From assembly GCA_938030665.1 (NCBI GenBank), contig CALHHY010000115.1, positions 1 through 64,000 on the forward strand: a stretch of DNA of 64,000 nt, read 5' to 3'. The notes under the pieces are model-generated. The model did no database searches, was not told the DNA's origin, and saw only the letters and a list, made by a program, of their open reading frames with translations. Of the stretch, positions 14,162 to 34,256 are shown in pieces (within the stretch, counting starts at the first letter, position 1; every line of letters begins with the position of its first letter). Source of the stretch: an uncultured Litoreibacter sp. Its GTDB lineage: Bacteria > Pseudomonadota > Alphaproteobacteria > Rhodobacterales > Rhodobacteraceae. Both the position numbers and the translations under genes were made by a program.

Positions 14162-17100
14162 CTAAGGCATCGGCCCGTTTCTTGCCCGATTCAGAAGGCG
14201 ACCGATCCAGACAACGAGTACCAGCAGCGTGAAGGCGCCCAGCAAGACAGGTGCGACTTTGGCGTCACTGTCGCAGAATGTCAGGACCAATAGCAGCAGG
14301 AACAGCGTCAGATTGATCAGACGGACCGTGCCCACCATCAAGACCCGAAAAGCCAGTTTCTCGGCATTGCCGCTGTAGTAGGAGCGCCAGGTCAGAACCG
14401 CCATGGCAGCGAAAAGCCCCATGCCGATAAGGGACAGATAGGCACGCTGTGGACAGGCCACTGTGCAAAGGTCCCGAAAGGCGGTTTCGAAACTGCCAAA
14501 CAGTTCCGGCAACCGATTCTGATCAAACAGGCCGTGTATGATCTTGGCGAGTTCTGCTGTTTCCGGGCCGTCCACCAGGGGGAGCGGCCAGAACCCGATC
14601 CCCGCGAAATTATCCCGGAAATAGATGGCGTCATCTTCAAACTGACCGAACGTGTCCCTTTGTGCCGCCAGCCTCTTGGGCTTTACGGTCGGTTGCACGT
14701 TTTTATGGCCACCGGGGGGCAGCACCGGGATGATCGAATGCAGGACATTGCTGCGCTCGTCGCCCTGAAACAGTCCCTGTTCCATACGAAAACGCAGGCC
14801 CTTCTTGTTGTCGGACGTCTTGCGTTCCAGGAAAAACAGGATGCGGCTGATCATCTTCAGCGTGTCACGTTCCGTCTCAACTGACTTGGCCGGGATCGGG
14901 ATGCCGCGATTGTCGCGTGCCTGCTCCTGCACAATAATGGTGCGGGTGATCAGCAGGTCATAGAGCTCGTCAAACAGGCCGGTTTCAAGATCATCGGCAA
15001 CCCGTGCAAAATCGAAGGCCACGTTTATGTCCAGCCGCTCGCGGTTGGGCAGGGCGGCATGCACCTCCTTGATGATGTTGATCATCTGATCCATCTCGGC
15101 CGGGGTCATCTTGTTGGGCTCATAGCCGTGAAAGATCAGGGTCAACCCATCCGGTTGGGGTGTGTCAAATATTGTTGGCAGCGCAGCCGCGAAATCCTTC
15201 AGCCGGTAGCTGGGTACTTTGTCAAAGGGGGCCATTTGCACCGATATCTTTGCGATGGCCTGCTCGATGTTGCGGATGCTCCAGTGTTGCCAATTGCGCA
15301 GATCAAAGGCCACATCGACCTTCCCGCGATGGCGATGCGCTTCATTGACGAAACTGCGCTTGGCGGCGGTCCATTGATCCTCGTGCTTCAGGATCACGTC
15401 ACGTTGGCCAGCGGGCGCATCCGGGTCCACGAAGTCAAATTCCAACCCGTAATAGGCAACGCGCCCGGTCAGGCTGAAATCGATCCGGTGCGGCATCGGT
15501 TCTGCGGCGTCCGTTTCCTCCAAAGCAGCGGCACTTTCCACGGTCGGAGCTACCGGCGCAAACCAGAATGGGTAAAAGCTATAGACCTCCGTCTGCTTGT
15601 TGGTGGCCGGGACGCAGCCGCATTTCTCCTTCGCGAAGCCCTCGGTCAGGCGCGGTGCCGCGGACCTCGGGGCCTCCGTCAGGGCCACGTTAACGATCTT
15701 GTTCAGCAGGTAGTCGGATAGGGGGCGGTCGACGGGTTGCAGGTCCGCAGGTGGAACAGTGTCTAAAGCCGCCTGAAACAACCGGAGGGAGGGGTATTGC
15801 ACGCCCGCAACCTCCTTCATCCGCTCAGTCAGTTTGCCGCCCGTTGCGTCGGCCTTCGCCTCGGCGATATAGGGGATGGCAAGGATCGCGCGTCGCAGTT
15901 TGGGCGTCAGGGACCAGCCTCCTTTGGCTGCGGGGACAATCATCTCAAGCTCTTTAGCGACCTTCTGCGCACTCTGCACCTCCGCAATGGGCCGAAGAGT
16001 GGAGCGAACCTGCCCTTTAAGAAGCTCGGGCTTGGTCGCTGGCAGGAAGTTCTCCGCCAAGAGCGCTTCGATGAAGCTGCGGTTCTTCAGGCTTTGTTCC
16101 AGCGACAGGGCCGTGGCGTCGGTCACCCCCGTGGTGGGCGGCGGCGGCGCATCCGGCTGCGGGATCTCCTCAGACAGGGCCGGAGTGTCATTCAACGGCG
16201 CGACTGGTTCGGCTGCAGCGGCCAACAAGTCGGCGGCCTTCTCAATCTCAAGTTCCGCTTCCGCGAGGGTCTGCGCGCTCAGGGCGGTCTGGATTGCAGC
16301 AATCAAACGTTCCTCCGACGGGAAGGCCGCGTCGAGGAATTCTTCGATCACCTCCTTGGCGTCTTGCAGCTCAGGCTCCGCGACCAGGTTGGTCGTCTCC
16401 TCGGCATTCAGCTCAAAGCTCAACCCTAGGTTCTGGGTGTCCAGCACAACGCTGCGAACGGTCGGCAGGATGCAGTCGTCCAGCGTGCCAGAAAGGGTCT
16501 GTTCCAGCTCTGCCCATAGCCTTTCAACCGATCCTAACTCGGCATGTTCTTCGGCAAACGCCATCAGCAGCGGTTCGAGATCGAGGGAGGTTTCGATATT
16601 CGCGATGTCCTCCTCGGTCAGCTCGAAATACGTGGTGCTCGTCTCAGCAATATTTAGTGCGCAGGGATTGGGACTAGCCACCTGAGTGACGGAGGGAGAG
16701 CGATTGCGGAACCGCTTGATGACATCTCGCACGGAGGCCGGCGACCCGGCCATCCCGATCAGTGTCGGAGCGTTCTGGGCAGCAAGCCAAGGACCGAATT
16801 CGGGGTCCGTCAAATTACCAAGCGCGCCGGGGAAGTCCCGCTCTAATGCGCCAAGCGCCTCCAGTGCATCTACGAAATCTGTCGCCCCTCCGGCCATCGG
16901 CAGGACGCGGCACAGTTCGATCGGGCTGACCACATCAAAAGAGGAATAAAGCTGCCGCATCACGGCCTGCGCACTGGCACTTTCCGCCGTAGCCGCTACT
17001 GCCTGAAGGCAGGAAAACGGTGCCGTCTGATCGCCCAAAACCTTCGCCTTCATAAGCGGTGTCGCTGCAAGGCGGATCGGCAGGGCCTGTTGTTGCGGCG

Positions 17101-17479
17101 TAAGTGGGTCCGACAGCGTTGCCTTGAAATCAGATGACAACAAATTCTCGCGCCAGCGGCTGCCAGTCCCCGTCACCAAGGCCAGTTCCCCATAAGTTTC
17201 GGCCAACTTTAGAGTCGACGCTACGCTGGCTTCCCCGTCGCGGCTGATGAATTGGCACAGCCGATCAAGCCCCGCGAGCGTGTAGGCCCCCATCTGCCCA
17301 TCATCCAGCAGTGGGTTTGCATCGTTCAACGCTGTACGAAGCCCGAGCTGCACCGGTGCGACCGGTGCCCGCTGGACCGCCGCATTGTCGGGGTCCAGAA
17401 GATCCGTGCAATTGGCGAAGGCCATCCCCGGCAGCAGCAGGAAGAAAACGGCCAGCAGCGTGTTACGCAATGCAATCAT
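14162..17479 (-). CDS. Large secreted/membrane-anchored CIS-associated protein: signal peptide, PG-binding-like N-terminus, degenerate GH18-like domain, C-terminal TM helices
   Basis: 1105 aa; MIALRNTLLAVFFLLLPGMAFA signal peptide; VYSFYPFWFAP / IDFSLTGRVAYYGLEFDF GH18-like blocks; hydrophobic C-terminal helices; 4-nt overlap with the CIS ATPase. Confidence 0.7.
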   Translation of the reverse strand: MIALRNTLLAVFFLLLPGMAFANCTDLLDPDNAAVQRAPVAPVQLGLRTALNDANPLLDDGQMGAYTLAGLDRLCQFISRDGEASVASTLKLAETYGELALVTGTGSRWRENLLSSDFKATLSDPLTPQQQALPIRLAATPLMKAKVLGDQTAPFSCLQAVAATAESASAQAVMRQLYSSFDVVSPIELCRVLPMAGGATDFVDALEALGALERDFPGALGNLTDPEFGPWLAAQNAPTLIGMAGSPASVRDVIKRFRNRSPSVTQVASPNPCALNIAETSTTYFELTEEDIANIETSLDLEPLLMAFAEEHAELGSVERLWAELEQTLSGTLDDCILPTVRSVVLDTQNLGLSFELNAEETTNLVAEPELQDAKEVIEEFLDAAFPSEERLIAAIQTALSAQTLAEAELEIEKAADLLAAAAEPVAPLNDTPALSEEIPQPDAPPPPTTGVTDATALSLEQSLKNRSFIEALLAENFLPATKPELLKGQVRSTLRPIAEVQSAQKVAKELEMIVPAAKGGWSLTPKLRRAILAIPYIAEAKADATGGKLTERMKEVAGVQYPSLRLFQAALDTVPPADLQPVDRPLSDYLLNKIVNVALTEAPRSAAPRLTEGFAKEKCGCVPATNKQTEVYSFYPFWFAPVAPTVESAAALEETDAAEPMPHRIDFSLTGRVAYYGLEFDFVDPDAPAGQRDVILKHEDQWTAAKRSFVNEAHRHRGKVDVAFDLRNWQHWSIRNIEQAIAKISVQMAPFDKVPSYRLKDFAAALPTIFDTPQPDGLTLIFHGYEPNKMTPAEMDQMINIIKEVHAALPNRERLDINVAFDFARVADDLETGLFDELYDLLITRTIIVQEQARDNRGIPIPAKSVETERDTLKMISRILFFLERKTSDNKKGLRFRMEQGLFQGDERSNVLHSIIPVLPPGGHKNVQPTVKPKRLAAQRDTFGQFEDDAIYFRDNFAGIGFWPLPLVDGPETAELAKIIHGLFDQNRLPELFGSFETAFRDLCTVACPQRAYLSLIGMGLFAAMAVLTWRSYYSGNAEKLAFRVLMVGTVRLINLTLFLLLLVLTFCDSDAKVAPVLLGAFTLLVLVVWIGRLLNRARNGPMP

Positions 17480-18810
17480 GACGTTCGTCCTTCCTTTCGC
17501 ATTTCATTCTGGATCGCCTCCTTGAAATCTGCGGCCGCTAAGACCTCGCTTTCGCGTCGCAGGGCGGTGATCGCTGCATGGCGGACAACGTTGGAGATCG
17601 CGCCGCCGGTCAGCTCATGCGCGCGGGCTAGGCCGTTGATATCGACATCCGGCCCCACGGGAAGACCCTGCATAATGCCTTGCCAGATACGCCTGCGCGC
17701 AGCTTCATCAGGTCGGGTGAAGCCCAAGGCCATCTGAAACCTGCGAAAAAACGCGTCATCAATGTTGGACCGCAGGTTGGTGGCGAGGATCACCAGACTT
17801 TCGCAATCCTCGATGCGTTGCAGAAGGTAGGAAACCTCCTGATTGGCATAGCGGTCATTGGACGAACTCGTCGCAGTCCGTGCGCCGAACAAAGCGTCGG
17901 CTTCGTCAAAAAACAGAATCCACTCCCGTTCAGCTGCCATGTCAAAGACAAGGCCCAGGTTCTTCTCCGTCTCGCCGATATATTTGGAGACCACCATCGA
18001 CAGATCAATGCGGTAGACATCAAGCCCGGTTTGCTTGCCCAAAAGCGTGGCCGTCAGCGTCTTTCCAGTTCCGGGCGGGCCATAAAAAAGCGCCTTGAAC
18101 CCGCCCCCGAATTGGCGTTCCAGGTTCCAGTCCTTCAGGATCTTGTCTCTGTGGGTCAACCATGAGGTAATGCTGCCAAGCTGATGCAGCAGGGGCGCGG
18201 ACAGGACGAGGTCAGCCCAGTCAAGCTTGGTCGTCAGCCGCTTGGCCGGAAAACTGGGGGAGAAATCAGGCTTTGGCGCGACGCCATTGCACAATGTGAT
18301 CACACGATGCATCGCGAGATCAAGAAGGGTGCTCGGCGTGGCATTGTTACCCTCCAGCCCATTCAGTTGAAGCCCAAGGAACCGCCGCAACGGATGATCG
18401 GGGTCGAGCAATCGCATCGCCGCGATGCGGGACTGGGTTTGGGTGCCGGCGACAAGAAACAACGCCGTCTCTGTCGTTGGCTGAAAGCCGTACGGCCCTT
18501 GATGGCCACCGAATTGGGAGAACACACGATCAATCGCGGAGTTCTTGACGTAAAATGGGTCTAACACTGCCGAATTGACGTGTGGTGCCAAGGCCAACGC
18601 TTGAACCAGCCGGGCCTCAACGTCCAGCGCGTATGTTTTGATCGACGCGCCAAGTGCGGTATCGATTCCGTGCATCGGTACGGGTGGCAAAGCGAGCGCA
18701 TCGGTTTCACCCGCAAAGAAATGCGTCAGGCGCGCCTCGATCACTGCGCCAAGCCATTCCAGCTCTGCCGCGACCGCCGAGGCGTTGAGAGTATGGGCCG
18801 CATCAGTCAT
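17476..18810 (-). CDS. AAA+ ATPase of contractile injection system (Afp15-like)
   Basis: Walker A YGPPGTGKT, Walker B ILFFDEADALFG, NDRYANQEVSYLLQRIE; start chosen at MTDAAHTLN. Confidence 0.9.
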   Translation of the reverse strand: MTDAAHTLNASAVAAELEWLGAVIEARLTHFFAGETDALALPPVPMHGIDTALGASIKTYALDVEARLVQALALAPHVNSAVLDPFYVKNSAIDRVFSQFGGHQGPYGFQPTTETALFLVAGTQTQSRIAAMRLLDPDHPLRRFLGLQLNGLEGNNATPSTLLDLAMHRVITLCNGVAPKPDFSPSFPAKRLTTKLDWADLVLSAPLLHQLGSITSWLTHRDKILKDWNLERQFGGGFKALFYGPPGTGKTLTATLLGKQTGLDVYRIDLSMVVSKYIGETEKNLGLVFDMAAEREWILFFDEADALFGARTATSSSNDRYANQEVSYLLQRIEDCESLVILATNLRSNIDDAFFRRFQMALGFTRPDEAARRRIWQGIMQGLPVGPDVDINGLARAHELTGGAISNVVRHAAITALRRESEVLAAADFKEAIQNEMRKEGRTS

Positions 18811-21800
18811 TGCGGTCCCTCCAGTGAACATGACAGGGTATGCGCATCCATGGCAGCGCAACCGGCGTAATGGGCCAAGGCAATCCGTCCAGTAGCATGT
18901 CGAACGGTCCCGGCAGCACGTGCAGATGGGTGCCGGTATCGTCCGCCGTCAGACTGCCGGGACGCACCAAAAACGTTTCGCGCAGCCCGTCGGGCGACGT
19001 TTTCCCAAGTCTGCCCCATTGCGCCACGACTGCCGCAAGTAGCCCCTCAATCAGCGCTTCCGTTTCCTCATTCAGCGGCCGCTGCGTAAGTTCGGGCCGC
19101 CCCTCAAGCCCTAGCAGGACATAATGCAATGCATCCGGCCGGCCATGTGATCCGGTGAGACCCTGCAGCACGCTGAAAGCATAATCGCGGCGCGTCTCAA
19201 TGATCTGGCGGTCGGCGTCCAGAATCTCCAATCGCTCAAATAGGAGCCGAAGATGCGGATGGAGCAGCACGAGTCCTGCGTGGTCTGTGATCACATCCTG
19301 GGGCCCGGCGGATGAAGAAGGCGTTTTGCTATCCTCACGAGGCTCAACCGTCTGGTCACTTAGCGATGCCGGTGCGGTTGTCCCGATGTCGGTCAGAACC
19401 GCATCAACCGCAGCGGCAAGCTCATGTCGAAGCGCCGGCCGGGGACCGCCGACCTGATAGGATAGACGTGTCGAAAGGACGCGCGCCAAATCGATCCGCT
19501 CGCTAGTATCTGGCGCAAGCCTTTCAAGACTGGCCGCGACCGAGCCGGCGAGACTCTGTGGAAACGACAAACTCAGAATGCTGAACTCCAGCAGAAAAAA
19601 ATCCTTTGGGGTCGGTATGTTTGACTTTGGCAAAGGCGGCGTATGGGTGGAGTCGTCGCCGCCCAAATCGCCGTGCTTTGCATCAAAAACGTGCCGGTAG
19701 CGTTCTGGAAGCGCCTCCCAGAGCAGTTCGAAATGGCCCCTGTGGATGATAATGTTCGTAGAACCAATAGTGTCTAACAAGCTAGAAAGCACTTCCGCTT
19801 GAGCTTGCTGCACGCCGGACGATAACGGATTCTTCTGAAGTCTCTCCACCAAGAGCGTCAAAGCCTTGCGGTGCTTATTTCGCGAGGTCACCTGCGCCCG
19901 GGGGTTATCGACGTCCGTCGGAATTGTATTGTTCAGACTTACTACGGAGTTGCCGGAAATCGATGAACGATCTCTCCGTTCCCGCCCAGCTTGCGCCTCG
20001 GTCGGTTGGTCAGCTGCGTCCGCTGTTCTTGTGATCACATTCACAGCAACCCCTTGTAACAAGTCTTGCAAAAGAGCTGTTTTTGCGTCTTTGCCCCCCT
20101 GCTTATCGTCGACATTGTTGCGAACATATCGGCGCGCGTCTGGGTGAAGTTGTGCAAGCGCAACGGAGATTAATTGATCTTGCGTCGCGTCAGAAAGCGC
20201 CTGCAACAGCAGGCCCAGCTGCCCATGATACCGACCTGCAAATGCGCGAAGCTGGTGGAATGTTATTGCCGGATCATCCGTTAGGCATTCCCAGAAAGCC
20301 AGGTCACCCTTCTGGACCACATCCGGTGACTGAGATTGCTCGGACCGCCTGCGATTGTCGTTCGGCGTAGCTGAGGCCCGCTTAGACCGGGTTCTCTTTG
20401 ATTGATTTTTGAGGTTGCTACCTGCGGTCGACCTGCCATCCGACGGTCCTGAAAGATCAGAGAAATCGATGGGCCGTTCGTCAAGAAGTGTACGCATCAA
20501 GCGTCTGAGTTTCTCAGGTTGGTCTGCGTAACTTGCGACAAAAGAGGCAAGCGTTGCGCGGAAACGTTCGGCGCCATCCGGAGCCAGCCGGTCGCAAAGC
20601 GTCGCGATGTCTTCCGCGGCAGCAGTACAAATAAACGGCTCTAACCCAGCAGAATTTTCGTTCCACAATCTCCGCAAGGTTTCAGCAGAAGCGCTTACAA
20701 ACTGATCTCTGGTCAACGGTTGAACCGGGTCCAGATGATTGAAGAAGCCAGCAACCCCCACCTGAAGACGCATCACATCGTCCTTATGCTGGCCGACCAT
20801 GCCAATCATATGATGCGCCGCGTTCGGTAGAAAGATCGCAAGATAATCGGCCAGACGGCCAAATGGCGCCGTTTCCAGTACCCTCATCCGTTGCTTAGCG
20901 CTGAGCTTTGCGATGCGAGCAAACTCCTGATGCCAATCCGGCTCGTTGCCTCTAGGGCTATCGCGGCTATAACCAACGTTCGCTGACCCCAGTCTTCGCT
21001 CAATATCAGCCCGGTCCGGGCTTCGAATGGTTTTGAAATCACTCGATGCGCGCGAAGTTAAGTTTTCAAAATTGATGGCAGCCCCGTGGAGTAGTGCCCG
21101 CAATAGCAGTAACCGCTGATCGGTAGACTGAGGCTCCTCACCCAGAACCTGTTTAAGCTTCTGGCGCAATTCGGCGGCCCCTTGGGGGATCAGGTTGATC
21201 AGCAGTTTACGCTGTTCGTTGTCATCAAGTTCCTCGAAATGAGTCTCCAACTGGGTGGGATTGGCTCGCCAAAGCGCTCTTATTGCAGAATGACGATTTG
21301 ACTGATCGGCCGATTTCTTATCCCGCGGGAAAAGCTCTGCATTATAATCTGAACCAGCCAGAAGCGCGCGCAGGCTCGCATGCGACTTTCCGGGTTGATT
21401 GAAAACAGAGAGGATCGTCTGAACGTCGCGGTCCAGCTCAGAAGCGGGGCTTTGAGACGCCAGGAGCGCCCAAATACGATCCCGCCGCTGTTTGGGAATA
21501 TGCGCCTGAACGGCCTCGTTCAAAGCGACAGAGTTCGTCCGACTAAGCGCTCTTAGACCTGCATGCGATATACCTGTCCGACCGAAGACAGCAAGAAGCG
21601 TCTCGATGTCCTGATCCAATTCTGAGGATAGCATGGTTGACCGTACCGGAGCATCGGGCAACGTTTGCGACCCCTCATGGTCAGAGTCTTGTGCCAAGAA
21701 ATTGGTCAGAAGCGGCAGCACCACAGCCGCCGCAAGCAGCGCTGACTTCTGGTCGATCTCCAGATCGTTCGACACGCCCTCAAAGCTCGCCAGAAGCTCG

Positions 21801-22534
21801 GACACATGGTTCTGTACGTCCTCAAGCCAGAAACGATGCGCCTCCAGCTGTTGGACCATGAGCGCATCCCCGCCGCTGTCAGGTCCGTCTGCAAACGGTA
21901 AAGAGCGCTGGAGAATTGCGATGACACTCGAATGCGGCCCCGGTTCCTCTTGAACAAGATAACTCGGCGATGTGAGTTGGTCTTGCAGACGCGCGATGTC
22001 CGCAGCGGACCAGCTTTCATACATCCTCTGACGTCGTGTAGATGTAGAGAATAGGCTGGAATAGAGCCTTTCTTGGTGTTCAGGGTACTGTGCAATATGC
22101 GAAGCGATAATCTGTCGCGCCTTTGCGGCGGAGAGCCGCAAAAGATCGGCGGCCGTTGGCGGTGTGAACGGGTCTGACCCGCGTTCGGTGGGTGCCTCTA
22201 AATTGTCATCTCCCGGACCCTGACCCGGCCAGATCACATAAGGAGCCAGCGCGTTGCGCAGCTTCTGTGCGAAGACGTAGCGCAGCTCTGCCCAGTCCGG
22301 GGGATCGGACCAGTGCCCTAGGTCAATCTCCAATATCTCAACGTCGGCAAGTGCCTGGCGGAGAGGCCCAGCATCCAACACCTGCTCCAACACGGGCAGG
22401 ACCTCTGCTTTCAAGGCCACCGCAAGGCTATCCAGCGTGGCGAGCGAACTATTCAAAGCTTCGACATGCAAGTCCGTCTGCAGGATGCCGATGCGCGGAC
22501 GGACGCGTGCCTTTGAGGTCACCGGCGCGCTCAT
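18803..22534 (-). CDS. CIS tape measure protein (Afp14-like)
   Basis: 1243 aa; IGILQTDLHVEALNSS...LDLGHW-like N-terminus typical of CIS tape measure proteins; position between ATPase and baseplate genes. Confidence 0.8.
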   Translation of the reverse strand: MSAPVTSKARVRPRIGILQTDLHVEALNSSLATLDSLAVALKAEVLPVLEQVLDAGPLRQALADVEILEIDLGHWSDPPDWAELRYVFAQKLRNALAPYVIWPGQGPGDDNLEAPTERGSDPFTPPTAADLLRLSAAKARQIIASHIAQYPEHQERLYSSLFSTSTRRQRMYESWSAADIARLQDQLTSPSYLVQEEPGPHSSVIAILQRSLPFADGPDSGGDALMVQQLEAHRFWLEDVQNHVSELLASFEGVSNDLEIDQKSALLAAAVVLPLLTNFLAQDSDHEGSQTLPDAPVRSTMLSSELDQDIETLLAVFGRTGISHAGLRALSRTNSVALNEAVQAHIPKQRRDRIWALLASQSPASELDRDVQTILSVFNQPGKSHASLRALLAGSDYNAELFPRDKKSADQSNRHSAIRALWRANPTQLETHFEELDDNEQRKLLINLIPQGAAELRQKLKQVLGEEPQSTDQRLLLLRALLHGAAINFENLTSRASSDFKTIRSPDRADIERRLGSANVGYSRDSPRGNEPDWHQEFARIAKLSAKQRMRVLETAPFGRLADYLAIFLPNAAHHMIGMVGQHKDDVMRLQVGVAGFFNHLDPVQPLTRDQFVSASAETLRRLWNENSAGLEPFICTAAAEDIATLCDRLAPDGAERFRATLASFVASYADQPEKLRRLMRTLLDERPIDFSDLSGPSDGRSTAGSNLKNQSKRTRSKRASATPNDNRRRSEQSQSPDVVQKGDLAFWECLTDDPAITFHQLRAFAGRYHGQLGLLLQALSDATQDQLISVALAQLHPDARRYVRNNVDDKQGGKDAKTALLQDLLQGVAVNVITRTADAADQPTEAQAGRERRDRSSISGNSVVSLNNTIPTDVDNPRAQVTSRNKHRKALTLLVERLQKNPLSSGVQQAQAEVLSSLLDTIGSTNIIIHRGHFELLWEALPERYRHVFDAKHGDLGGDDSTHTPPLPKSNIPTPKDFFLLEFSILSLSFPQSLAGSVAASLERLAPDTSERIDLARVLSTRLSYQVGGPRPALRHELAAAVDAVLTDIGTTAPASLSDQTVEPREDSKTPSSSAGPQDVITDHAGLVLLHPHLRLLFERLEILDADRQIIETRRDYAFSVLQGLTGSHGRPDALHYVLLGLEGRPELTQRPLNEETEALIEGLLAAVVAQWGRLGKTSPDGLRETFLVRPGSLTADDTGTHLHVLPGPFDMLLDGLPWPITPVALPWMRIPCHVHWRDRND

Positions 22535-24666
22535 TGTGCCGGCTCCAGCGTTTGTAGAAACGCATGTAATTCGAGTTGACCGTCAGGCGTTGGCTTGATT
22601 TCACGCAACTCTTCAAACCGGGCCATGTGAGGGTGATCCAGCCAAAAGACGTCAATCTTCACATGCGCAGGAGCCAGCCGCTGAACCAGCTGCGCGACAT
22701 AACCGCGGTAGGCATCCAATCGGGTGCGAGCGGTCCAACTTGTGATCAACAATCTTGCGCAATTGGCACGATAAGGCGCGCGGCTTCCAGCGAAGCCAAC
22801 ATCCTCGATCAGGTAACAGCCTTCACTGCGTTCGTGGAGCGCCCGCCAGCTGGCGCGCAGCCGGTGCACTGTCTCAAGGCCATCCGTTTTGTCCAGACCA
22901 GCTGCGATCAGAATAGGCTCTAATCCATCGGAATAGTCAAATAATACCTGCCATCCTTTGTTGTCGTCTGGGGCCATAGTGAAGGCAAACGGATCAGCGG
23001 CTCGGGCGTATAGGGCCGGTGAAAGCACACCTTCTGACACCCAAGGGGACTGTTCACGCAAGATCGCGTCATCATAGGGGAGGGCCTGATCGTCCAGGGG
23101 CACCAACATGTCAAACGGGTTCAGATCGCGCCTGCGTTCGGGATTGGCCACGCGGGCTGGCTGCTGTGGCGCCTCCGCGGCAAGTTGAAAACCACAGGCG
23201 GTAAGGGGCGCGGCGGCATTGCCTGGTGTGATCGGCAAATCAGCGAGCAAGCCAAGATAGCCCAAAAACCCGCCGATCGTCCAGCCGCCGGGTCCCACGC
23301 CCTTCGCTGCGTTGATCTCGGTCAGGGCATGCAGGATGCGTTGCCGCCAGGCCAGCTCGAACGCGTGCCGCTCGCGGGCGCTGCGGTAATGATGCAGCCC
23401 CGTGTGCCGGGTAGCAGGCAGAGTTTCACCATGAAGCGCGATACGGTAGTCCAGCAGCGCGATGCGCTGACGGTAAAGCACAGGATCGTCCAAGGCCGGA
23501 TCGGTCCGCGCCGCGAATATGGCCGGAAGTTCCGCCAACGCTGTGCGGTGCAAATCCAAATGTGTCTCTAAACTGTTACGAAACGCGGCAAGTGGCACGT
23601 CTGAGCGGTCGTGCTGATACCCATGAGCCGGATACAGTCCGGGTAAAAGCGTATCCACATGCGCTGCTTCAAATGACCGATCTTGGCCGCCATAGCGCAC
23701 TTGCCAATCAGCTTGCGTGACATGGTGATGCGTGGTGCTGATCTGCTCCGCAGTGATACGCATCAGCTCTTCCCGGATGGTCGCCGCGGACAGGTCGACG
23801 TTCAGCCCATTCAGCGTGAAATCCAGACCGACCTGACCATCGGTAACCGGGCGGACCGTGGCGTAGAAATTCGGCACCCCGGTGCTGCGACGGTCCAGCG
23901 GGTCTAGCTCAAGCTCGGTGATGTTGCGGATACCGGGAATATCGCGCAGCGTTTTGAGATGCGCGTGCAGGTCGGGGGACCGCGTCCGCCGCGCCCCGCT
24001 GCGCCGCCAAAGGGCAATGGGATCGTCATACACATCGTCTCGCGTCGCCCCGATGACGGTCGTGCGCGTGTAAGGCAGCCCCCGAAGAATGACGGACACG
24101 GCGTGGTAAAGCTCTGCTGCGACCCGCTCCGGCAGGACGGTATCGCTGATCTCGACCTCGCCTTTCAGGATCACGCGCTGCTGTTTGGCAATGACGACAC
24201 GGCCCAACCCGGTGCAAAGCGGCCGAATGCGGGCAAACCCTTCGCGGACGATGGTTTCAAGCCGCTTCGCCCCGATTTGATCTTCGGCCGGAACCACCAC
24301 CGCGTCGTATAACCCCGGCTCCCGAGCAGGATCGACCCAGGCACGGGCAACCCCGGGAAGGTCGGATAGATACGCATTGAGGTCCTGCAAGGTCACGGGT
24401 GCGCTGCGCAGAACCTTTCGCGGGTTGTATTGAGGATGCTCAACGCCTGCTGCAAATGCCCCGTTCTGATCCGTCAGCAGGTCTCGCACCGGAAAATCAG
24501 CCTGATAGGCGGTCTGGCTTAGGGCGAAACACGTCTGCTCCAACAGGGTGACGCCGGGGTCGTGCAGGTTGTAGTCGGTCCATAACTCGCCCGAGGCATG
24601 TTGCGCGTGGTCTATCGCCTCCCGGCGCAGCTCGGCAAAGGTGATATGAGGCGGGTTATCCGTCAT
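22531..24666 (-). CDS. CIS baseplate protein (Afp12-like / baseplate J-type)
   Basis: LWTDYNLHDPGVTLLEQTCFALSQTAYQADFPVRDLLT, typical N-terminus of Afp12-class baseplate proteins. Confidence 0.8.
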   Translation of the reverse strand: MTDNPPHITFAELRREAIDHAQHASGELWTDYNLHDPGVTLLEQTCFALSQTAYQADFPVRDLLTDQNGAFAAGVEHPQYNPRKVLRSAPVTLQDLNAYLSDLPGVARAWVDPAREPGLYDAVVVPAEDQIGAKRLETIVREGFARIRPLCTGLGRVVIAKQQRVILKGEVEISDTVLPERVAAELYHAVSVILRGLPYTRTTVIGATRDDVYDDPIALWRRSGARRTRSPDLHAHLKTLRDIPGIRNITELELDPLDRRSTGVPNFYATVRPVTDGQVGLDFTLNGLNVDLSAATIREELMRITAEQISTTHHHVTQADWQVRYGGQDRSFEAAHVDTLLPGLYPAHGYQHDRSDVPLAAFRNSLETHLDLHRTALAELPAIFAARTDPALDDPVLYRQRIALLDYRIALHGETLPATRHTGLHHYRSARERHAFELAWRQRILHALTEINAAKGVGPGGWTIGGFLGYLGLLADLPITPGNAAAPLTACGFQLAAEAPQQPARVANPERRRDLNPFDMLVPLDDQALPYDDAILREQSPWVSEGVLSPALYARAADPFAFTMAPDDNKGWQVLFDYSDGLEPILIAAGLDKTDGLETVHRLRASWRALHERSEGCYLIEDVGFAGSRAPYRANCARLLITSWTARTRLDAYRGYVAQLVQRLAPAHVKIDVFWLDHPHMARFEELREIKPTPDGQLELHAFLQTLEPAQ

Positions 24667-25523
24667 AGCAGATCCGGATCACGTGGCGGCTGCCCCCGTG
24701 ACCCGCGCATCGTCTGATCAAACCAGAGCCGCGTAAGTCGGTACTGGATCGTGTGCTTGCCACCGAAATCGGCATTTGTGCAAATCTGCAACCGGAAGTG
24801 ATGCGGCGCGGGGTCCTTCACCCAACGCAACCGGATGCGATCCGCGTAGCTGCCATACATCGCGGTTTGCGTTCTGATCTGGCGGCGCCTGAATATCCAA
24901 TTCAACACCCGGTTACGCGGATGGTAGGCGTTCATCGCGATGGCATAGAGCATCGAGTAGCGCCCCTGCCCCTCCTGCCCGCCTGCGCCCGCGACCACCT
25001 CAAAGGCCTGACAGCCGGTCATCTCCTTCGTGATGTCCTGCCATTTGCCGTTGGCGTAGACCTCCTTGACCCCGGCGCTTTCAACCCCGATCCGGCCATG
25101 CATCCGGGCGACCCCGTTTACGTCAAGCGGCCAGGTCGGCTTGTGAAGCCCGATGCCCACCTGCCCGGCAGCGTCAATGCTAATACCGCGTTCAGGCACC
25201 GCATCATTGGCATCTGGCGGTTTGTTAGGGTCTAGTTTATGGGCATTCTTCCCTTTGTCAGGGCGGATATGTAACGCGCCGGGATTGGTATCACCATGCT
25301 CGATCACCCATGATGGGGACGGGGTGCCATAATCCTCATAAAGGCTCATCACCTTTAGCGATGACCCGACCGAGCTCAGCTTCAGCCCGTCAATATCGGT
25401 TTTGTCGAACCCGTCCTCGACCTGATTCACACTGCTGTCGATCAGGTCACGGTAATGGCTTGCGCTTGGCAGCGCGCCATCGCGAAAGAAGGATTTTAAC
25501 GTTGTGCGGTCCGTTTTGCTCAC
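24663..25523 (-). CDS. Tail-fibre-like CIS protein (Afp13 position)
   Basis: GISIDAAGQVGIGLHKPTWPLDVNGVARMHGRIG resembles tail-fibre motifs (GVGTxxPxxxLDVNG); lies among baseplate genes. Confidence 0.6.
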   Translation of the reverse strand: MSKTDRTTLKSFFRDGALPSASHYRDLIDSSVNQVEDGFDKTDIDGLKLSSVGSSLKVMSLYEDYGTPSPSWVIEHGDTNPGALHIRPDKGKNAHKLDPNKPPDANDAVPERGISIDAAGQVGIGLHKPTWPLDVNGVARMHGRIGVESAGVKEVYANGKWQDITKEMTGCQAFEVVAGAGGQEGQGRYSMLYAIAMNAYHPRNRVLNWIFRRRQIRTQTAMYGSYADRIRLRWVKDPAPHHFRLQICTNADFGGKHTIQYRLTRLWFDQTMRGSRGQPPRDPDLL

Positions 25524-25524
25524 G

Positions 25525-28500
25525 TCAGCTTCCTTCTCCTACGACCAGCATGTCACCAACGGTGAGGCGGCTGATACCTGTCGGGGCCGCGGGCTCTTGT
25601 TGCAGGTCAGTCTCAACCGTCAGCACATGGTCGCGAGTGGACAATGGCAACGCCCATGGACGGGTAGCACGCAGAACGGCGCCCGCCCCGCGCGCTGTGT
25701 CGGCAAGCCGGTACACCGCCGCATCATCGCCCGCCAGATGCAGCACCGAGAACTCGGACAGGGCGCGGACATATGGCTGGGCCAGGATATGCGCCTGTAA
25801 CGCCCGGATGTTGAGCGACCAGCCAAACCGTCCGAGCGTTTCATCTGCGGTCCAGACCGATAGATAGGCCGCCAGGTCCTTCTTCAGCTGTTGTGCCATG
25901 GCCCCGTTTTCGCGCTCTGGCTCAAAGTCCAGCTTGGCACGCACCTGCAACCGCTCAAAACTTGGGTTAACGACTTCGAGCTGCGCATTGTTAGAGCCTA
26001 TTTTTGTAACAAACGCTTTGATACGGGACAGCGTGGCGACGTCGAACAAACTTGGCTCAAAACTGCCATTTGTCCCATGTACCAAGGCCCGGCGCGCCAC
26101 GACAAGCGTCGCATATCCCGGCTGCGGCATCGGCGTTGTTCGCCGCGTATGGGGCAGGCAGTTGGCCATCCAGACCTCTGGGAAGGCTTCCAGCACCAGC
26201 CGCTCGATGTCCCACGGCGTGACGGCGCGACCCCGGTGTTTCAACCGCTCGCCAACTCGCGTGACAAAGGCCTGTTCTGTTTCCGGGGGGTGGATTGCGG
26301 CGGGGGTCACGATCTCCGAAATGCCTGCAATATCGGGGCGGGCCGGGTTGAAGGTCCAAACCCGGGACGCCGACGCGCCGGGGGCGAAATTGGTGTCGCG
26401 AGCGCTGGCCCAGACGCCATTCACCTTGACCCGTTCTAGCTGCGGGAAGTCGTCCAACCGCTGACCTTGGGCGATGGCCGCAATCCAGACCCCGCCGACG
26501 GGCATCTCGGGCGAGTGCCGGGCGGCATCCTCGGGCAGGTCAATGGAGACAAGCCCCGATCGCATCAGCCCCGCGGTCGTATCAGAAGAGATCGCGGTTC
26601 CCGGCAGACGCTGCCATCCAAGCGGTGACAGATAGTGCCAAGTCACCGGGTTAGATGCGGGCACAACGCGCAAATGCCCGCTTTGCGCCATCTCAAAACA
26701 CAAGACGGTTGGCCCTGTCACATGCGCGCCCGTAAGCTGGATAAACAACTGCCCGAAACCGAACCGTTCCGGGAACAGGCAAATGGGGCGCAGCATGCGT
26801 TGCGGGAAGACCTCGACCTGGCCAAAGGGGCCAACCTGCACGATGCTGTCGCCGGTGCGGGCCGAGTCCGGGGCTGCGACCTCGATCGTGTCAGTGGCCG
26901 TATATGAAAGACTAAACCGGCCTATCTTGGGCACAAAGGGCTTGGGCGGCAGCACCCTTTGCCGCAAAGGGTTCAAACGGGGGCGCATCGCGTCAACCAG
27001 GGCCAGCGGATAGCGATTTGCATGAAATCCACCAGCCGTGCCGCTGAGCCTCAAACGCACGATACCTGCGCGAATGGTCTGACGGGATGCAAACTCCTTT
27101 GCTTTCACCACCCCGTGCGCGGGCTGGGTATGCCCCGTTACCGCGCCGTGGTAGCGCCAGCCTGGCGTCACGACATCGGTGATCGGGTCGCTTTCAAGCA
27201 TCGCAGCCGGTCCGCCTTTCACGGCCTTCCAACCGTCGCCGCTTAGATAGTCGACACTCAGCTGCGGTTTGGGTGCCTCCACGCCGCGGCCATAACTTTC
27301 ATAATGCGTGGACAGCCCGCCGGGTTGATCCGGCAGATCCGTCCAGTCGAGTGATATGCCAACATGAGTGACCGATTTACGCGCCATCTCGGGCGCGCCG
27401 GCAACAAATGTTGCGCCGTCATCCGGTTGGATGCCGAAAGGCAGGAACGTCTGATCCGTGGCAACAAGTCCGTCATCCGAGAACGCGGCGAGGGTTTTCA
27501 GCCCGGCGACCTGCACGCTGATATCAATACTTTCAACCCGGTAGCGTTCGAAAAACGACACCGGGCAGACAACGGCGGACCCGGCCATGCGTAGCGACAG
27601 CTTGGGGGCGGCTCCCGGCGCAAGCCCCGCGATAGCGGGCATGCTGTCATCAAGGGCCATGCTGATGCACAGGCCCGCTGGCGCGCCTTGATCGCTGGGG
27701 GCGACGTGCAGAATGCCGGGCCGCACCATGCCCTGTGCGGTGCTGATCCGAATATCAAATGCGTCGCCCAAAAGCTTTTGGAAAACATCAACAGGTGCGT
27801 TGTCGATTGCGCCATCTGGCAAAGCGGAAAAGGCTCTAAATATGCCCGATTGTTGCACATTCATTGGTGACATGGCGCTATTTGGGTCACGGTTCTGGCC
27901 GGTCAGCTCCGTGCGACCTCTGGCAATCTGCGCAAATATATCGCGCCAATACCGACCCTTCGGGAAGTCAATGTTGTGGATGATGCACAAGCCGGCGATC
28001 CGCATCAACAACAGGCGCAAGGCTAGGATATTGGGCACCGGGTTGCGCGCCAGAACCTCGTAGATCAACCACAGGCTGGGCCGGACGTTTCGACGCCGGG
28101 CGGTGTCGCTGATCTTGAAGGCGAGAAGGTGGATGGCAGATTCAGGTGGGCCCGCACAGAAGGCCGCGATTAACGCCGGATCAGCGCGCAAAGCCAGGAC
28201 CAACTCCGGCTCAACCGTGCCGCGCTTGGGCCGCTCTTCCCCGTCGCGGTAGGGCGTGGATATGGCGGGCAAGTCCGTGGGAGGGCTGAGATTGATCTGA
28301 ACGGTGATCTTGCGCTGCCCCTCGGCCAGTTCAAGCGTGGTCGAGTAAATGTCCAACCCCATGTCGATCGCTGCTGGGGCCCCTGCGTTAAACATCTTCC
28401 CACTGCCCACATCGCCGCCCTGCGCATATGTCGCCGTGACGCCTGTGATCGCGTTGAATGCCGCGTTGAACGACACGTCAGGGTCGGTCTCATAGCTTAA

Positions 28501-29424
28501 CGTGGCAACGGCCGTCACTTTCGCCGGGTTCAGATGGACCCCCGCATCTGTCGCAAAGCTTTGCACGGTGTTGTCAGGCAGCCGCGCCTCTAATCTGCTA
28601 CCCGCAGGCAAAAAGCTGGGTTGGGGCCCGGCGGTCAAATCAAGCAGAACGGTTTCGGGCGTCGCAGGGCGGGGCTTCTGGCCAATAATGTCTTCGTAAA
28701 AGAACCGCGTGTGACGCGGCACAATCGCGTTGATCCGGTCCTCGATCCGGCCGGAAACCTTAATCTCGGCAAGCAAAAGGCCCAGAACAGGCTCTATTCT
28801 TTTCGATTTCAATCGCATCTCGAACGCGGCCCTTGCCTGCGGTTGCAAGGCGGCCACGGCGTTTCGTAACATGCGATGCGCGGTCTCCAGCGCGTGCTTC
28901 ATTGCGCGGGCCTCAGCGATGCCCCCGCGAGCAGACGCGAGCTGAGGGGCGAGACCGGCAGCCTCGATCCCCTTTAGCAGCGCCGTCGGCCTGTATTGTG
29001 CGAGCTCTGCCAGGACACGCTCCAAATCCGCCTCGACATTGAGCTGGTCCAGCTGATCGCGAAACGTATCAAGCGGCCCCGTGCGGATGCGGCCGACCCA
29101 GTGATGCAGCTTCTTGGCCAGGTCGGAGAGTAGCCGAACCGCTTTCAGCGGCTCATAATCAAGCGCATTCTCAAAAGAAAATGCAGCGTCGTCGGCCCGA
29201 AAGGTCAAGATTTCGGCAAATAGAAATGCGGGTTCCTGATGGAAAAGCCGCTGCCAAGGCCCCTTTTCCGGATGAAGCGCGCCCGCAGATAGCCGATTTC
29301 CCGCCGCACAGAACGCCTCCGCCAACCCGTCCATATGGATGCGAAACCTGCCCTCCCCTAATGCAGGAGGCAGGCGGTCGCTGGCGCGGGTGCCGGGTGT
29401 TACGTTGATGTCGGTCCAGTCCAA
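25525..29424 (-). CDS. CIS baseplate J-like protein (Afp11-like)
   Basis: 1299 aa; VLLDLTAGPQPSFLPAGSRLEA; RVGERLKHRGRAVTPWDIERLVLEAFPEVW. Confidence 0.85.
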   Translation of the reverse strand: MDWTDINVTPGTRASDRLPPALGEGRFRIHMDGLAEAFCAAGNRLSAGALHPEKGPWQRLFHQEPAFLFAEILTFRADDAAFSFENALDYEPLKAVRLLSDLAKKLHHWVGRIRTGPLDTFRDQLDQLNVEADLERVLAELAQYRPTALLKGIEAAGLAPQLASARGGIAEARAMKHALETAHRMLRNAVAALQPQARAAFEMRLKSKRIEPVLGLLLAEIKVSGRIEDRINAIVPRHTRFFYEDIIGQKPRPATPETVLLDLTAGPQPSFLPAGSRLEARLPDNTVQSFATDAGVHLNPAKVTAVATLSYETDPDVSFNAAFNAITGVTATYAQGGDVGSGKMFNAGAPAAIDMGLDIYSTTLELAEGQRKITVQINLSPPTDLPAISTPYRDGEERPKRGTVEPELVLALRADPALIAAFCAGPPESAIHLLAFKISDTARRRNVRPSLWLIYEVLARNPVPNILALRLLLMRIAGLCIIHNIDFPKGRYWRDIFAQIARGRTELTGQNRDPNSAMSPMNVQQSGIFRAFSALPDGAIDNAPVDVFQKLLGDAFDIRISTAQGMVRPGILHVAPSDQGAPAGLCISMALDDSMPAIAGLAPGAAPKLSLRMAGSAVVCPVSFFERYRVESIDISVQVAGLKTLAAFSDDGLVATDQTFLPFGIQPDDGATFVAGAPEMARKSVTHVGISLDWTDLPDQPGGLSTHYESYGRGVEAPKPQLSVDYLSGDGWKAVKGGPAAMLESDPITDVVTPGWRYHGAVTGHTQPAHGVVKAKEFASRQTIRAGIVRLRLSGTAGGFHANRYPLALVDAMRPRLNPLRQRVLPPKPFVPKIGRFSLSYTATDTIEVAAPDSARTGDSIVQVGPFGQVEVFPQRMLRPICLFPERFGFGQLFIQLTGAHVTGPTVLCFEMAQSGHLRVVPASNPVTWHYLSPLGWQRLPGTAISSDTTAGLMRSGLVSIDLPEDAARHSPEMPVGGVWIAAIAQGQRLDDFPQLERVKVNGVWASARDTNFAPGASASRVWTFNPARPDIAGISEIVTPAAIHPPETEQAFVTRVGERLKHRGRAVTPWDIERLVLEAFPEVWMANCLPHTRRTTPMPQPGYATLVVARRALVHGTNGSFEPSLFDVATLSRIKAFVTKIGSNNAQLEVVNPSFERLQVRAKLDFEPERENGAMAQQLKKDLAAYLSVWTADETLGRFGWSLNIRALQAHILAQPYVRALSEFSVLHLAGDDAAVYRLADTARGAGAVLRATRPWALPLSTRDHVLTVETDLQQEPAAPTGISRLTVGDMLVVGEGS

Positions 29425-29457: not shown

Positions 29458-30402
29458 CTACTCAGACGCCGCTTCAGGGGCCGGTTCGGGTGGATCGTCT
29501 GACAGAAAAACGGCACTGATCGTGCCCAGATCGCTTTCGATGATAAGGATGCCCCCGAAGGATTGGGGCGGGCCGGGTCGGTCCATCGGGGCGAATTGGG
29601 AAGCCTCAAAAGAGGCGCGGAGCGGCACGGGTTCGCGGCCCGTTTGGAACGGGTACCGGCGCGCGCCGCTGACGCTTACCTGCACTTCACCTTGCCCGCT
29701 GCTGACAAACCTGGCCCCGCAAAGAAACAGCTCCGTCCAGGTCAACTCCGAGAATGTGACGCGGCCATCGGTCGGCAGCTCGAATATCGTGAATGACCCC
29801 CTGCCCGAACCGTAACCGGCCTCAAACCGGAAGCGCGCCTGAACCTCTTGCGTCGTCAGCCCCCCTTCGTCGTCGAAGGCGTGCAGCTGCAGCGCTACGG
29901 GGCCGGTAAACACCGCCTTGCCAGTGGTAGGAATTTCAGTCGCCGCAGGGCCGGGACCCACAACCAATGGCCCCTGATAATTGACCTTCTTGGTGCGGTA
30001 ATTGAGGTCATAGACATTTGGCAGCTGATCGGTCGGGCCGAAACCGCTGCGTGCCGTCGCCTCCGACTTACGGGAGCCTTTGAATCCATCATCGTCCAAG
30101 GGCCGCAGCCTGCGGATCGCGGTGTCATCAAACTGGATGTTCTTCTTCAGCCCACGCCGGTTGATCCGCCCGTCAATAAAAACAGGGTCGAAGCCAAGTG
30201 CTGCAACGGGTTGGCGCAAGTAAGCGCCGGCCAAGCGACGGCCTTCACGCGGTGTGATCACACAGGGCTGGTCCTGAACAAGCCCTACCAACTGCGCCGT
30301 TGGGCTTTCCTTCACATCATCCACAACCCCCTCGCAGGACGCAAGGAAGGCGGCGGCGAACAGCGCGCAGATCACGGGCGATATGGAGAGGCGCCAACCC
30401 AT
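29458..30402 (-). CDS. Putative lipoprotein encoded within the CIS operon
   Basis: Start at MGWRLSISPVICALFAAAFLASCEG gives a type II signal peptide with lipobox LASC; stop at 29458. Confidence 0.65.
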   Translation of the reverse strand: MGWRLSISPVICALFAAAFLASCEGVVDDVKESPTAQLVGLVQDQPCVITPREGRRLAGAYLRQPVAALGFDPVFIDGRINRRGLKKNIQFDDTAIRRLRPLDDDGFKGSRKSEATARSGFGPTDQLPNVYDLNYRTKKVNYQGPLVVGPGPAATEIPTTGKAVFTGPVALQLHAFDDEGGLTTQEVQARFRFEAGYGSGRGSFTIFELPTDGRVTFSELTWTELFLCGARFVSSGQGEVQVSVSGARRYPFQTGREPVPLRASFEASQFAPMDRPGPPQSFGGILIIESDLGTISAVFLSDDPPEPAPEAASE

Positions 30403-32937: not shown

Positions 32938-33624
32938 TCACCTCATAGGCGGGAAGCGCAGCAGCGTTCCCGGCGTCAATGAGCGAAAATTGTCGAGGCC
33001 GTTCAAAGCCGCAATTTCAAGGTACTTGCCCGCGTCCTTGTAGATGCGGTGGCACAGCATCGGCAACGTGTCCCCGTCGACCACCTGAACGACATGGGTC
33101 AGATCAGGCGACTTGCGTTTGGCTTCCAGCGCTTCCTGCGCCTCGGTGCGGGCCTCGATGAAATCCATCTTGATCTTGGCGCGTAAAGCTTCGCCGTTGG
33201 GGTGGAATAGAGTATAATCCATGGACATGGAGGTAAGCCGCCCGAAGAAGGCTTTCAGCCCCTTCCCCCACATGATTTTGACGGCTGTTGGCTCATGCTC
33301 GTCGCCATCATAATCGTAGACGATCTTGCGCAACTGTTCGATCTGCTTCGCGACGGTCTGCTTCTTCTTGTCAGGCACCACCCCGGTGCCGTCGACAATG
33401 ATCGAGAAGCTCACTTTCTCCGGCTCGGCCATCGCATATTTCGGCACCGGGGCGGAGCTGCCAATCGGGTTCTCCCCCTGCCCCATCGTGCCGGTGTAGT
33501 TTAGCCCGAAATTATGCGAATAGCTTTCCGGGTTAATCACGGCCTCAAAGATGTTGGCCGGGCCTTTCTTGGGCTCTATCTTGCTTTTGCCCATCTTGCA
33601 GCGCTGAATGCGGAGCTTGGCCAT
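32938..33624 (-). CDS. LysM-type CIS baseplate/hub protein (Afp7-like)
   Basis: EPKKGPANIFEAVINPESYSHNF...; C-terminal LysM-like VVDGDTLPMLCHRIYKDAGKYLEIAALNGLDNFRSLTPGTLLRFP. Confidence 0.88.
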   Translation of the reverse strand: MAKLRIQRCKMGKSKIEPKKGPANIFEAVINPESYSHNFGLNYTGTMGQGENPIGSSAPVPKYAMAEPEKVSFSIIVDGTGVVPDKKKQTVAKQIEQLRKIVYDYDGDEHEPTAVKIMWGKGLKAFFGRLTSMSMDYTLFHPNGEALRAKIKMDFIEARTEAQEALEAKRKSPDLTHVVQVVDGDTLPMLCHRIYKDAGKYLEIAALNGLDNFRSLTPGTLLRFPPMR

Positions 33625-33627
33625 CGG

Positions 33628-33801
33628 CTATCGCTCCCCCGCGCGTCGCTGCGCGTCCTCAAGCATATCGCGCATCTCGGAAAGCAGGTCGCGGCGCCAT
33701 AGCTCCAACTCTTGCCGTGTTACGGAAGGCGCCGCGTCTCGATCCGCAGGCGCGCTGCCGAACGTGCCTTTGACCACCAATGTCCCGATCTCTACCGCCA
33801 T
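33628..33801 (-). CDS. DUF5908-like small CIS protein (Afp6 position), absent from supplied ORF track
   Basis: Manual translation: MAVEIGTLVVKGTFGSAPADRDAAPSVTRQELELWRRDLLSEMRDMLEDAQRRAGER*; start overlaps upstream stop by 1 nt (TGATG), ends 4 nt before the LysM gene. Confidence 0.8.
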   Translation of the reverse strand: MAVEIGTLVVKGTFGSAPADRDAAPSVTRQELELWRRDLLSEMRDMLEDAQRRAGER

Positions 33802-34256
33802 CAGACTTTCCTTTTGATCGTGTTATACGCAAGCTCGATCGTCTCTACGGCCAGCTCGTTTTTCATCGCGTCAAAGCCGCCAACCTCCCAGCTAACCGGG
33901 TAGGCGTTGGTCACGGTCCAGCTGGCCAGGGGGTCCCCCTCCTCATCCAGAAGGGAAACCGTAAGGTCTTTCGGCTCGATCCGCTTGGCTAGGTCCCGTT
34001 CCAGCGTTGCCTGACACCACTTCACCAACTCGCTGTTCTTCTTGGTCAGACTGCGCTTCAGCTTCAGGTTCGGGTTCTTCGCCGGTTTGGGTAGCTGGTG
34101 GACGAAACGGTTTTCCCCGCCTTCGACCACCGCTTCGGTGTCAAACCCCGCCTTCAGCCCGGACACTTCTTGAAAAGCCGCGTCCGAGATGGACGGGCCG
34201 GCCCCGGAAAAAGCGACCGAGAAGTGAAACGCTACGGGAAAAACAGGGTCTGACAT
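33801..34256 (-). CDS. CIS tube protein (gp19-like, Afp5-like)
   Basis: MSDPVFPVAFHFSVAFSGAGPSISDAAFQEVSGLKAG...AYPVSWEVGGFDAMKNELAVETIELAY. Confidence 0.9.
   Translation of the reverse strand: MSDPVFPVAFHFSVAFSGAGPSISDAAFQEVSGLKAGFDTEAVVEGGENRFVHQLPKPAKNPNLKLKRSLTKKNSELVKWCQATLERDLAKRIEPKDLTVSLLDEEGDPLASWTVTNAYPVSWEVGGFDAMKNELAVETIELAYNTIKRKV

What the first reader, a model, noticed from the sequence alone, without database searches (positions are those of the whole stretch)
14162..17479. Candidate envelope anchor for the CIS: signal peptide, PG-binding-like N-terminus and C-terminal TM helices
Seen: N-terminal signal peptide; QLGLRTALNDANPLLDDGQMGAYTLAGLDRLCQFI (17246-17353) resembles PG_binding_1 repeats; two or three hydrophobic C-terminal helices (YLSLIGMGLFAAMAVLTW, LINLTLFLLLLVLTF, VAPVLLGAFTLLVLVVWI). 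Established: membrane-attached CISs (e.g. cyanobacterial tCIS) need anchors absent from released eCIS. Inference: this protein may dock or gate the particle at the inner membrane/peptidoglycan.
Basis: partly seen in the sequence, partly recalled or inferred. Interest (0 to 1): 0.8.

Follow-up and report, generated by a model that had tools for sequence, protein, structure and literature searches.

The report
Envelope protein of a contractile injection system
The last gene of a phage-tail-like injection system in a marine Rhodobacteraceae genome makes a large exported protein anchored in the inner membrane; it travels only with one lineage of these systems, as expected of the part that fixes the syringe to the cell envelope, although no binding to the syringe has been shown.

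Summary
Window 14162-17479 (-) encodes one 1105-aa protein ("P1") with a signal peptide, a PG_binding_1-like N-terminal motif and three C-terminal TM helices. It overlaps the CIS AAA-ATPase gene by 4 bp and ends the CIS operon.

P1 homologues were found in Rhodobacterales, Burkholderiales, Nitrosomonas and Lysobacterales (Dyella). In all 30 fetched loci with upstream sequence they directly follow tape-measure then AAA-ATPase. Charges of TM loops in 33 homologues fit a periplasmic body with a cytoplasmic loop and tail. In 394 family genomes, all five with a real P1 also carry CIS, but 21 CIS-bearing genomes lack it; P1+ systems sit on one side of a branch of the CIS tree.

A second envelope gene turned up: a predicted lipoprotein (29458-30402, -), in 14/14 tested P1+ Rhodobacterales genomes and one weak hit among 21 P1-less CIS genomes.

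So P1 is a dedicated envelope component of one CIS lineage. Docking is the best explanation, but inferred. A homologue is solved (PDB 9r9a chain B, "Uncharacterized protein"); no paper was found. T6SS membrane-complex, tCIS Cis13-type and CisA-type anchors do not fit. A GH18-like fold was tested and not supported.

The parts
14162..17479 (-). P1: exported, inner-membrane-anchored CIS-associated protein, 1105 aa; last gene of the CIS operon
   Evidence: homologues; PDB 9r9a_B homologue E 3.4e-40
17414..17479 (-). signal peptide, residues 1-22, predicted cleavage AFA|NC
   Evidence: heuristic; SignalP not available
17204..17371 (-). PG_binding_1-like region, residues 37-92 (DGQMGAYT motif)
   Evidence: Prob 83%, P 8.6e-6; controls
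14387..14443 (-). TM helix 1, residues about 1013-1031 (out to in)
14288..14344 (-). TM helix 2, residues about 1046-1064 (in to out)
14201..14257 (-). TM helix 3, residues about 1075-1093, followed by a basic cytoplasmic tail ending RARNGPMP (RARNGPKP in most Rhodobacterales homologues)
17476..18861 (-). CIS AAA+ ATPase (Afp15/Pvc15 position); its stop overlaps the P1 start (ATGA)
   Evidence: PF00004 2e-27
18803..22534 (-). CIS tape-measure protein (CIS_TMP)
   Evidence: PF19268 1.7e-44
22531..24666 (-). 711-aa protein before the tape measure (Cis12 position), no TM helix
   Evidence: identity by position
24663..25523 (-). 286-aa short-fibre-like protein (Cis13 position), no TM helix
   Evidence: identity by position and motif
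25525..29424 (-). baseplate J-like protein; best PDB match 9rce_A
   Evidence: 2.6e-90
29458..30402 (-). predicted lipoprotein (lipobox FLASC), second candidate envelope component, co-occurring with P1 in Rhodobacterales
31168..32934 (-). VgrG-like spike; best PDB matches 9rce_F, AlgoCIS 7aef, tCIS 7b5h
32938..33624 (-). CIS_tube / Pvc7-like protein, used for the tree
   Evidence: PF19266 1.2e-44
33801..34256 (-). tube protein 2 (gp19-like)
34266..34724 (-). tube protein 1 (gp19-like)
34747..37050 (-). sheath protein with an inserted cadherin-like domain
37807..38382 (-). Pvc16-type cap protein, here at the front of the operon
   Evidence: PF14065 4.7e-33

Best explanation
P1 is the dedicated envelope component of one lineage of AlgoCIS/tCIS-type contractile injection systems in Proteobacteria. 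It is made from the CIS operon, coupled to the AAA-ATPase gene, exported by its signal peptide and held in the inner membrane by three C-terminal helices. About 1000 residues lie in the periplasm, where the N-terminal PG_binding_1-like segment probably contacts peptidoglycan; a basic loop and the conserved basic C-terminal tail (RARNGPxP) face the cytoplasm. The most likely mechanism is docking: the cytoplasmic loop and tail recruit the assembled particle, baseplate first, to the inner membrane, while the periplasmic body, in Rhodobacterales together with a co-inherited lipoprotein, fixes the site in the envelope so that the tube can fire outward or the particle is held until the cell is breached. 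Shown by sequence: export signal, TM helices, loop-charge pattern, synteny, lineage-restricted co-occurrence. Inferred: peptidoglycan contact, docking, direction of firing.
For: Always directly behind tape measure then AAA, start overlapping or within about 10 bp in nearly all loci. All five strong hits among 394 family genomes are CIS+, against 26/394 CIS+ overall; P1+ systems are one side of a branch (90/93; 0 of 500 shuffles as low). N-out/C-in topology from charges in 33 homologues: loop 1 net +61, loop 2 net -19, tail net +70. Cysteines invariant in five Rhodobacterales homologues, as expected of an exported protein. PG_binding-like motif. Companion lipoprotein in 14/14 P1+ Rhodobacterales genomes versus one weak hit in 21 P1- CIS genomes. 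The core matches the clade that includes tCIS and AlgoCIS. A homologue is in the PDB as 9r9a_B, with a code close to those of CIS entries 9r9h, 9r9n and 9rce (adjacency is circumstantial).
Against: No interaction with a baseplate protein is shown and no structure could be predicted. Only about 30 residues would face the cytoplasm, a small docking surface unless P1 is oligomeric. P1+ systems carry eCIS-type hallmarks: eCIS_core proteins occur in 14/14 tested P1+ Rhodobacterales genomes and just downstream of P1 in Herbaspirillum and Lysobacterales/Dyella loci, which fits a released particle as well as a docked one. The lipoprotein was not found in five beta/gammaproteobacterial genomes, so it is not a universal partner.
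Confidence: 0.6

Rival explanations
1. P1 is a release or lysis factor: a periplasmic protein that acts on peptidoglycan or the membrane so that the assembled eCIS particles can leave the cell; it does not dock them.
For: PG_binding-like motif and TM helices; eCIS_core candidate cargo in the same genomes and next to P1 in some loci.
Against: No hydrolase domain by Pfam, NCBIfam or PDB sequence search; its GH18-like look is not supported. Lysis proteins of phages are usually small; 1100 aa with a long conserved periplasmic part and a companion lipoprotein suggests a structural role (inference).
Confidence: 0.2
2. P1 and the lipoprotein form an envelope sensor or gate that triggers firing at the membrane, as CisA is needed for firing in Streptomyces, rather than a static anchor.
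For: CisA precedent: CIS contraction and function in S. coelicolor depend on a membrane protein (PMC12237407); P1 has a large periplasmic part and a small cytoplasmic part, like a receptor.
Against: CisA has the opposite layout (cytoplasmic N-terminus, one TM, periplasmic C-terminus). No direct data.
Confidence: 0.15
3. P1 is a self-protection or immunity protein at the inner membrane and only rides in the operon.
For: Membrane and periplasmic location; last gene of the operon.
Against: Its fixed place behind the AAA gene in Rhodobacterales, Burkholderiales, Nitrosomonas and Dyella, and its long conserved ectodomain, are unlike immunity genes, which track their toxin; it travels with the particle's structural lineage instead.
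Confidence: 0.05

Closest known systems
PDB 9r9a chain B ('Uncharacterized protein', 864 aa)
   Same: Homologous in three stretches: N-terminal region, the CGC/YGFYPFW region and the C-terminal TM region (profile E 3.4e-40); carries an LNDGIVGPTT motif, as a Nitrosomonas homologue carries LTDGLIGPVT.
   Different: About 240 aa shorter. Organism, entry title and paper could not be identified with these tools.
Thylakoid-anchored CIS (tCIS) of Anabaena, anchors Cis12/Cis13 (PMC8894136)
   Same: Close core machinery (spike E 6.1e-105 to 7b5h); a membrane-attached particle is the proposed shared behaviour.
   Different: tCIS uses a TM helix in Cis13 and an extension of Cis12; here the proteins at those positions have no TM helix and a separate exported protein is present.
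CisA of Streptomyces coelicolor CIS (PMC12237407)
   Same: A dedicated membrane protein of a CIS locus with a part on the far side of the membrane.
   Different: CisA: cytoplasmic N-terminus, one TM, periplasmic substrate-binding-like C-terminal domain, downstream of baseplate genes. P1: signal peptide, periplasmic body, three C-terminal TMs, behind the AAA gene.
T6SS trans-envelope complex TssJ-TssL-TssM
   Same: An inner-membrane protein with a large periplasmic part plus a lipoprotein: P1 plus the 29458-30402 product would be a parallel layout.
   Different: No T6SS membrane-complex family is found in either protein. TssM has N-terminal TMs and a cytoplasmic domain (own knowledge); P1 has C-terminal TMs.
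AlgoCIS (Algoriphagus eCIS)
   Same: Core parts (baseplate J E 4.1e-53, spike E 3.6e-107).
   Different: Described as an extracellular CIS (PMC13314943); P1 was not compared directly with the Alg proteins.

Membership tests
CIS of the AlgoCIS/tCIS/T6SSiv-like clade (host operon) | sheath, tubes, Pvc7-like tube, spike, baseplate J, tape measure, AAA and cap genes in one locus | tested here: met
P1 / 9r9a_B family | significant sequence homology along the protein | tested here: met
   three stretches, E 3.4e-40 (33-sequence profile)
P1 / 9r9a_B family | same complex and same function as 9r9a_B | not testable with these tools
   entry title, organism and partner chains not available; no paper found
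T6SS membrane complex (TssJLM) | detectable IcmF/TssM, TssL (DotU) or TssJ family domains | tested here: not met
   Pfam scans of P1 family and lipoprotein
tCIS-type anchor | TM helix in the short fibre-like Cis13 protein | tested here: not met
   no TM helix in 24663-25523; none in 22531-24666
CisA-type adaptor | cytoplasmic N-terminus, single TM, periplasmic C-terminal domain | tested here: not met
   signal peptide, three C-terminal TMs, cytoplasmic C-terminus by charge rule
PG_binding_1 domain protein | PG_binding_1 domain | tested here: inconclusive
   Pfam below threshold; profile-profile Prob 83%, P 8.6e-6 with clean controls; binding not tested
GH18 chitinase-like domain | homology to PF00704 and DxxDxDxE motif | tested here: not met
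   hhalign Prob 5% or less in most tests, 22% at best; catalytic Asp/Glu positions not conserved

The most novel reading that the evidence does not exclude
P1 and the co-inherited lipoprotein form a trans-envelope docking and exit complex, unrelated to TssJLM, that turns an eCIS-type particle of Proteobacteria into one that fires from inside through its own envelope: a separate origin of T6SS-like architecture on a CIS carrying eCIS-type (eCIS_core) effectors.
Probability: 0.3. Interest if true: 0.85.

Novelty: new variant of a known kind. Interest (0 to 1): 0.62.

Why it matters
How a CIS relates to its own cell envelope decides its mode of action (released, docked, or self-directed). P1 gives a gene marker that splits CIS within one family into two groups, with and without an envelope module, and the module can be removed and tested. 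If docking is right, membrane-attached CIS evolved by another route than T6SS, tCIS and the Streptomyces system.

Tried and rejected
Structure prediction of P1 with a 33-row alignment was interrupted and the tool then switched off, so no fold search was possible. A GH18-like TIM barrel was suspected from motif order (FYPFW, SRIAFYG, DGVTL) and tested with two GH18 alignments; not supported. First genome-contig scan with the single protein found nothing; the alignment query worked. No match in plasmids or phages. The G246 hit (E 3.8e-4, 130 C-terminal residues, frame with stops, no CIS) was rejected as chance similarity of TM regions. The lipoprotein has no Pfam family; lactoferrin-binding protein B at E 0.5 is not significant. 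The paper behind 9r9a was not found. A profile search of 21 CIS+ P1- genomes was empty; it had no internal positive control, but the single-sequence search still found 27%-identical homologues at E 1.1e-51.

Full report
WHAT WAS CLAIMED.

OBSERVATION. The frame is open from an ATG to a stop with no interruption. By a simple hydropathy and AxA rule the N-terminus is a signal peptide (h-region 2.6, cleavage AFA|NC); twelve other CIS proteins of the locus score at most 1.8. Three C-terminal TM helices are found in the window protein and its homologues. No Pfam model matches the window protein. The PG_binding_1-like stretch was tested by aligning the profile of the homologues' residues 25-110 with a profile of PG_binding_1 domains taken from the same and related genomes: Prob 83%, P 8.6e-6, in register with the DGxxGxxT motif. 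Windows of the same protein away from this region gave 0.8% or less, and column-shuffled copies at most 10.3%.

SURROUNDINGS. The operon on the minus strand reads cap (Pvc16-type), a 247-aa protein, sheath, two tubes, Pvc7-like tube, spike, PAAR and gp25-like frames (visible in the translation; named from motifs, not tested), a predicted lipoprotein, baseplate J, a 286-aa fibre-like protein, a 711-aa protein, tape measure, AAA ATPase, and P1. P1 starts inside the AAA stop (ATGA overlap) and is the last gene. In the PDB the baseplate J, spike and one tube are closest to 9rce, AlgoCIS (7aeb/7aef) and the Anabaena tCIS (7b5h).

HOMOLOGUES AND SYNTENY. Whole-genome searches found P1 in one of 20 other genomes of the genus and in four other genera among 394 family genomes. 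A scan of GTDB species contigs with a five-row alignment gave 32 loci: Rhodobacterales, plus Herbaspirillum, Collimonas, Duganella, Ramlibacter, Nitrosomonas, and Dyella and another Lysobacterales bacterium. In all 30 loci that hold the upstream DNA, P1 directly follows tape measure then AAA, mostly overlapping by 1-4 bp or within about 10 bp. P1 is absent from the plasmid and phage collections.

CO-OCCURRENCE. In the 394 family genomes 26 carry the CIS marker PF19266 and five have a strong P1 hit; all five are among the 26. By hand calculation this has a chance of about 1e-6 (about 1e-5 leaving the window genome out), ignoring relatedness. The 21 remaining CIS genomes have no P1 by profile search (no internal positive control). 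In one of them the AAA gene is followed by the cap gene (L085), as in the afp/pvc order (own knowledge). On a tree of the Pvc7-like protein the nine P1+ systems are one side of a branch (support 90/93; 0 of 500 label shuffles as low); the tree has long branches, so deeper joins are uncertain, and two of the nine rows are the same genomes fetched twice. One genome (G021) holds a P1+ and a P1- marker. In the window's genus one genome (G006) has a strong CIS marker without P1.

TOPOLOGY. Summed over 33 homologues, the loop between TM1 and TM2 has net charge +61, the loop between TM2 and TM3 -19, and the C-terminal tail +70. With an N-terminal signal peptide this fits a periplasmic body of about 1000 residues, a cytoplasmic loop and a cytoplasmic tail. 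Several cysteines are invariant in the five aligned Rhodobacterales homologues, as expected of an exported protein. The C-terminal RARNGPxP tail is conserved in Rhodobacterales and is the obvious candidate for contact with the particle (inference).

A SECOND ENVELOPE PROTEIN. Window 29458-30402 (-) encodes a 314-aa protein with a lipobox (FLAS|C). Homologues occur in all 14 P1+ Rhodobacterales genomes tested, most with a lipobox-like start (alignment), in one of 21 P1- CIS genomes and then weakly (29% over 202 residues), and in none of five beta/gammaproteobacterial P1+ genomes. Two envelope genes thus travel together with one CIS lineage in Rhodobacterales.

CARGO. All 14 P1+ Rhodobacterales genomes examined hold an eCIS_core protein, against none of 14 control genomes; the frequency in P1- family genomes was not measured. 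In Herbaspirillum and Lysobacterales/Dyella loci eCIS_core proteins lie just downstream of P1. The P1+ systems therefore appear to carry eCIS-type effectors.

A SOLVED HOMOLOGUE. A profile of 33 P1 sequences matches PDB chain 9r9a_B, an 864-aa 'Uncharacterized protein', in three stretches including the TM region (E 3.4e-40). The entry codes 9r9h, 9r9n and 9rce belong to CIS-like tube, spike and baseplate chains, so 9r9a may come from the same project; this rests on code adjacency alone. No paper could be found. Others may thus already know what the homologue does, which lowers the novelty claim.

MECHANISM. The best reading is docking at the inner membrane (0.6). Rivals are a release factor (0.2), an envelope sensor or trigger like CisA (0.15) and immunity (0.05). 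Shown: export signal, TM helices, loop charges, synteny, lineage restriction, companion lipoprotein. Inferred: peptidoglycan contact, contact with the particle, direction of firing.

COMPARISON. It is not a T6SS membrane complex by sequence, not a tCIS-type anchor (the Cis13- and Cis12-position proteins have no TM helix; PMC8894136) and not CisA-like in topology (PMC12237407). A guess that its middle part is a GH18-like barrel was tested twice and not supported.

VERDICT. A real, well-supported envelope component of a distinct CIS lineage; the anchoring role remains an inference. Novelty: new variant of a known kind.

Noticed in passing
window 29458-30402 (-): Predicted lipoprotein inside the CIS operon, co-inherited with P1 in Rhodobacterales; no known family.
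   Followed up: yes
window 34747-37050 (-): The sheath protein carries an inserted cadherin-like domain (PF16184, residues 290-388); several relatives' sheath matches break off around it.
   Followed up: no
window 41576-42907 (-): Periplasmic substrate-binding domain apparently interrupted by hydrophobic helices, with a weak match to glutamate-gated channel ligand domains (PF10613): a possible prokaryotic ionotropic-glutamate-receptor-like channel.
   Followed up: no
window 39163-40848 (-): Signal peptide, substrate-binding domain and permease-like TM helices fused in one frame next to the CIS operon.
   Followed up: no
window 1069-2169 (-): DUF2169 protein (often linked with T6SS, own knowledge) at the window edge, some 12 kb from P1; a separate secretion-related locus may lie there.
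   Followed up: no
L171 (G000:C26:56070-56267): The window's own genome has an eCIS_core protein on another contig, a candidate cargo of this CIS.
   Followed up: partly
L051, L054, L055, L056: In these P1+ relatives the CIS is split: spike-to-cap genes run towards the tape measure-AAA-P1 block on the opposite strand.
   Followed up: partly
L066, L067, L068: Dyella/Lysobacterales P1 homologues are about 790 aa and begin differently; one of the 33 homologues has a He_PIG Ig-like domain match, so the N-terminal module of the family appears exchangeable.
   Followed up: partly
L057 11971-18433: Three eCIS_core proteins in a row behind P1 in Herbaspirillum chlorophenolicum.
   Followed up: partly
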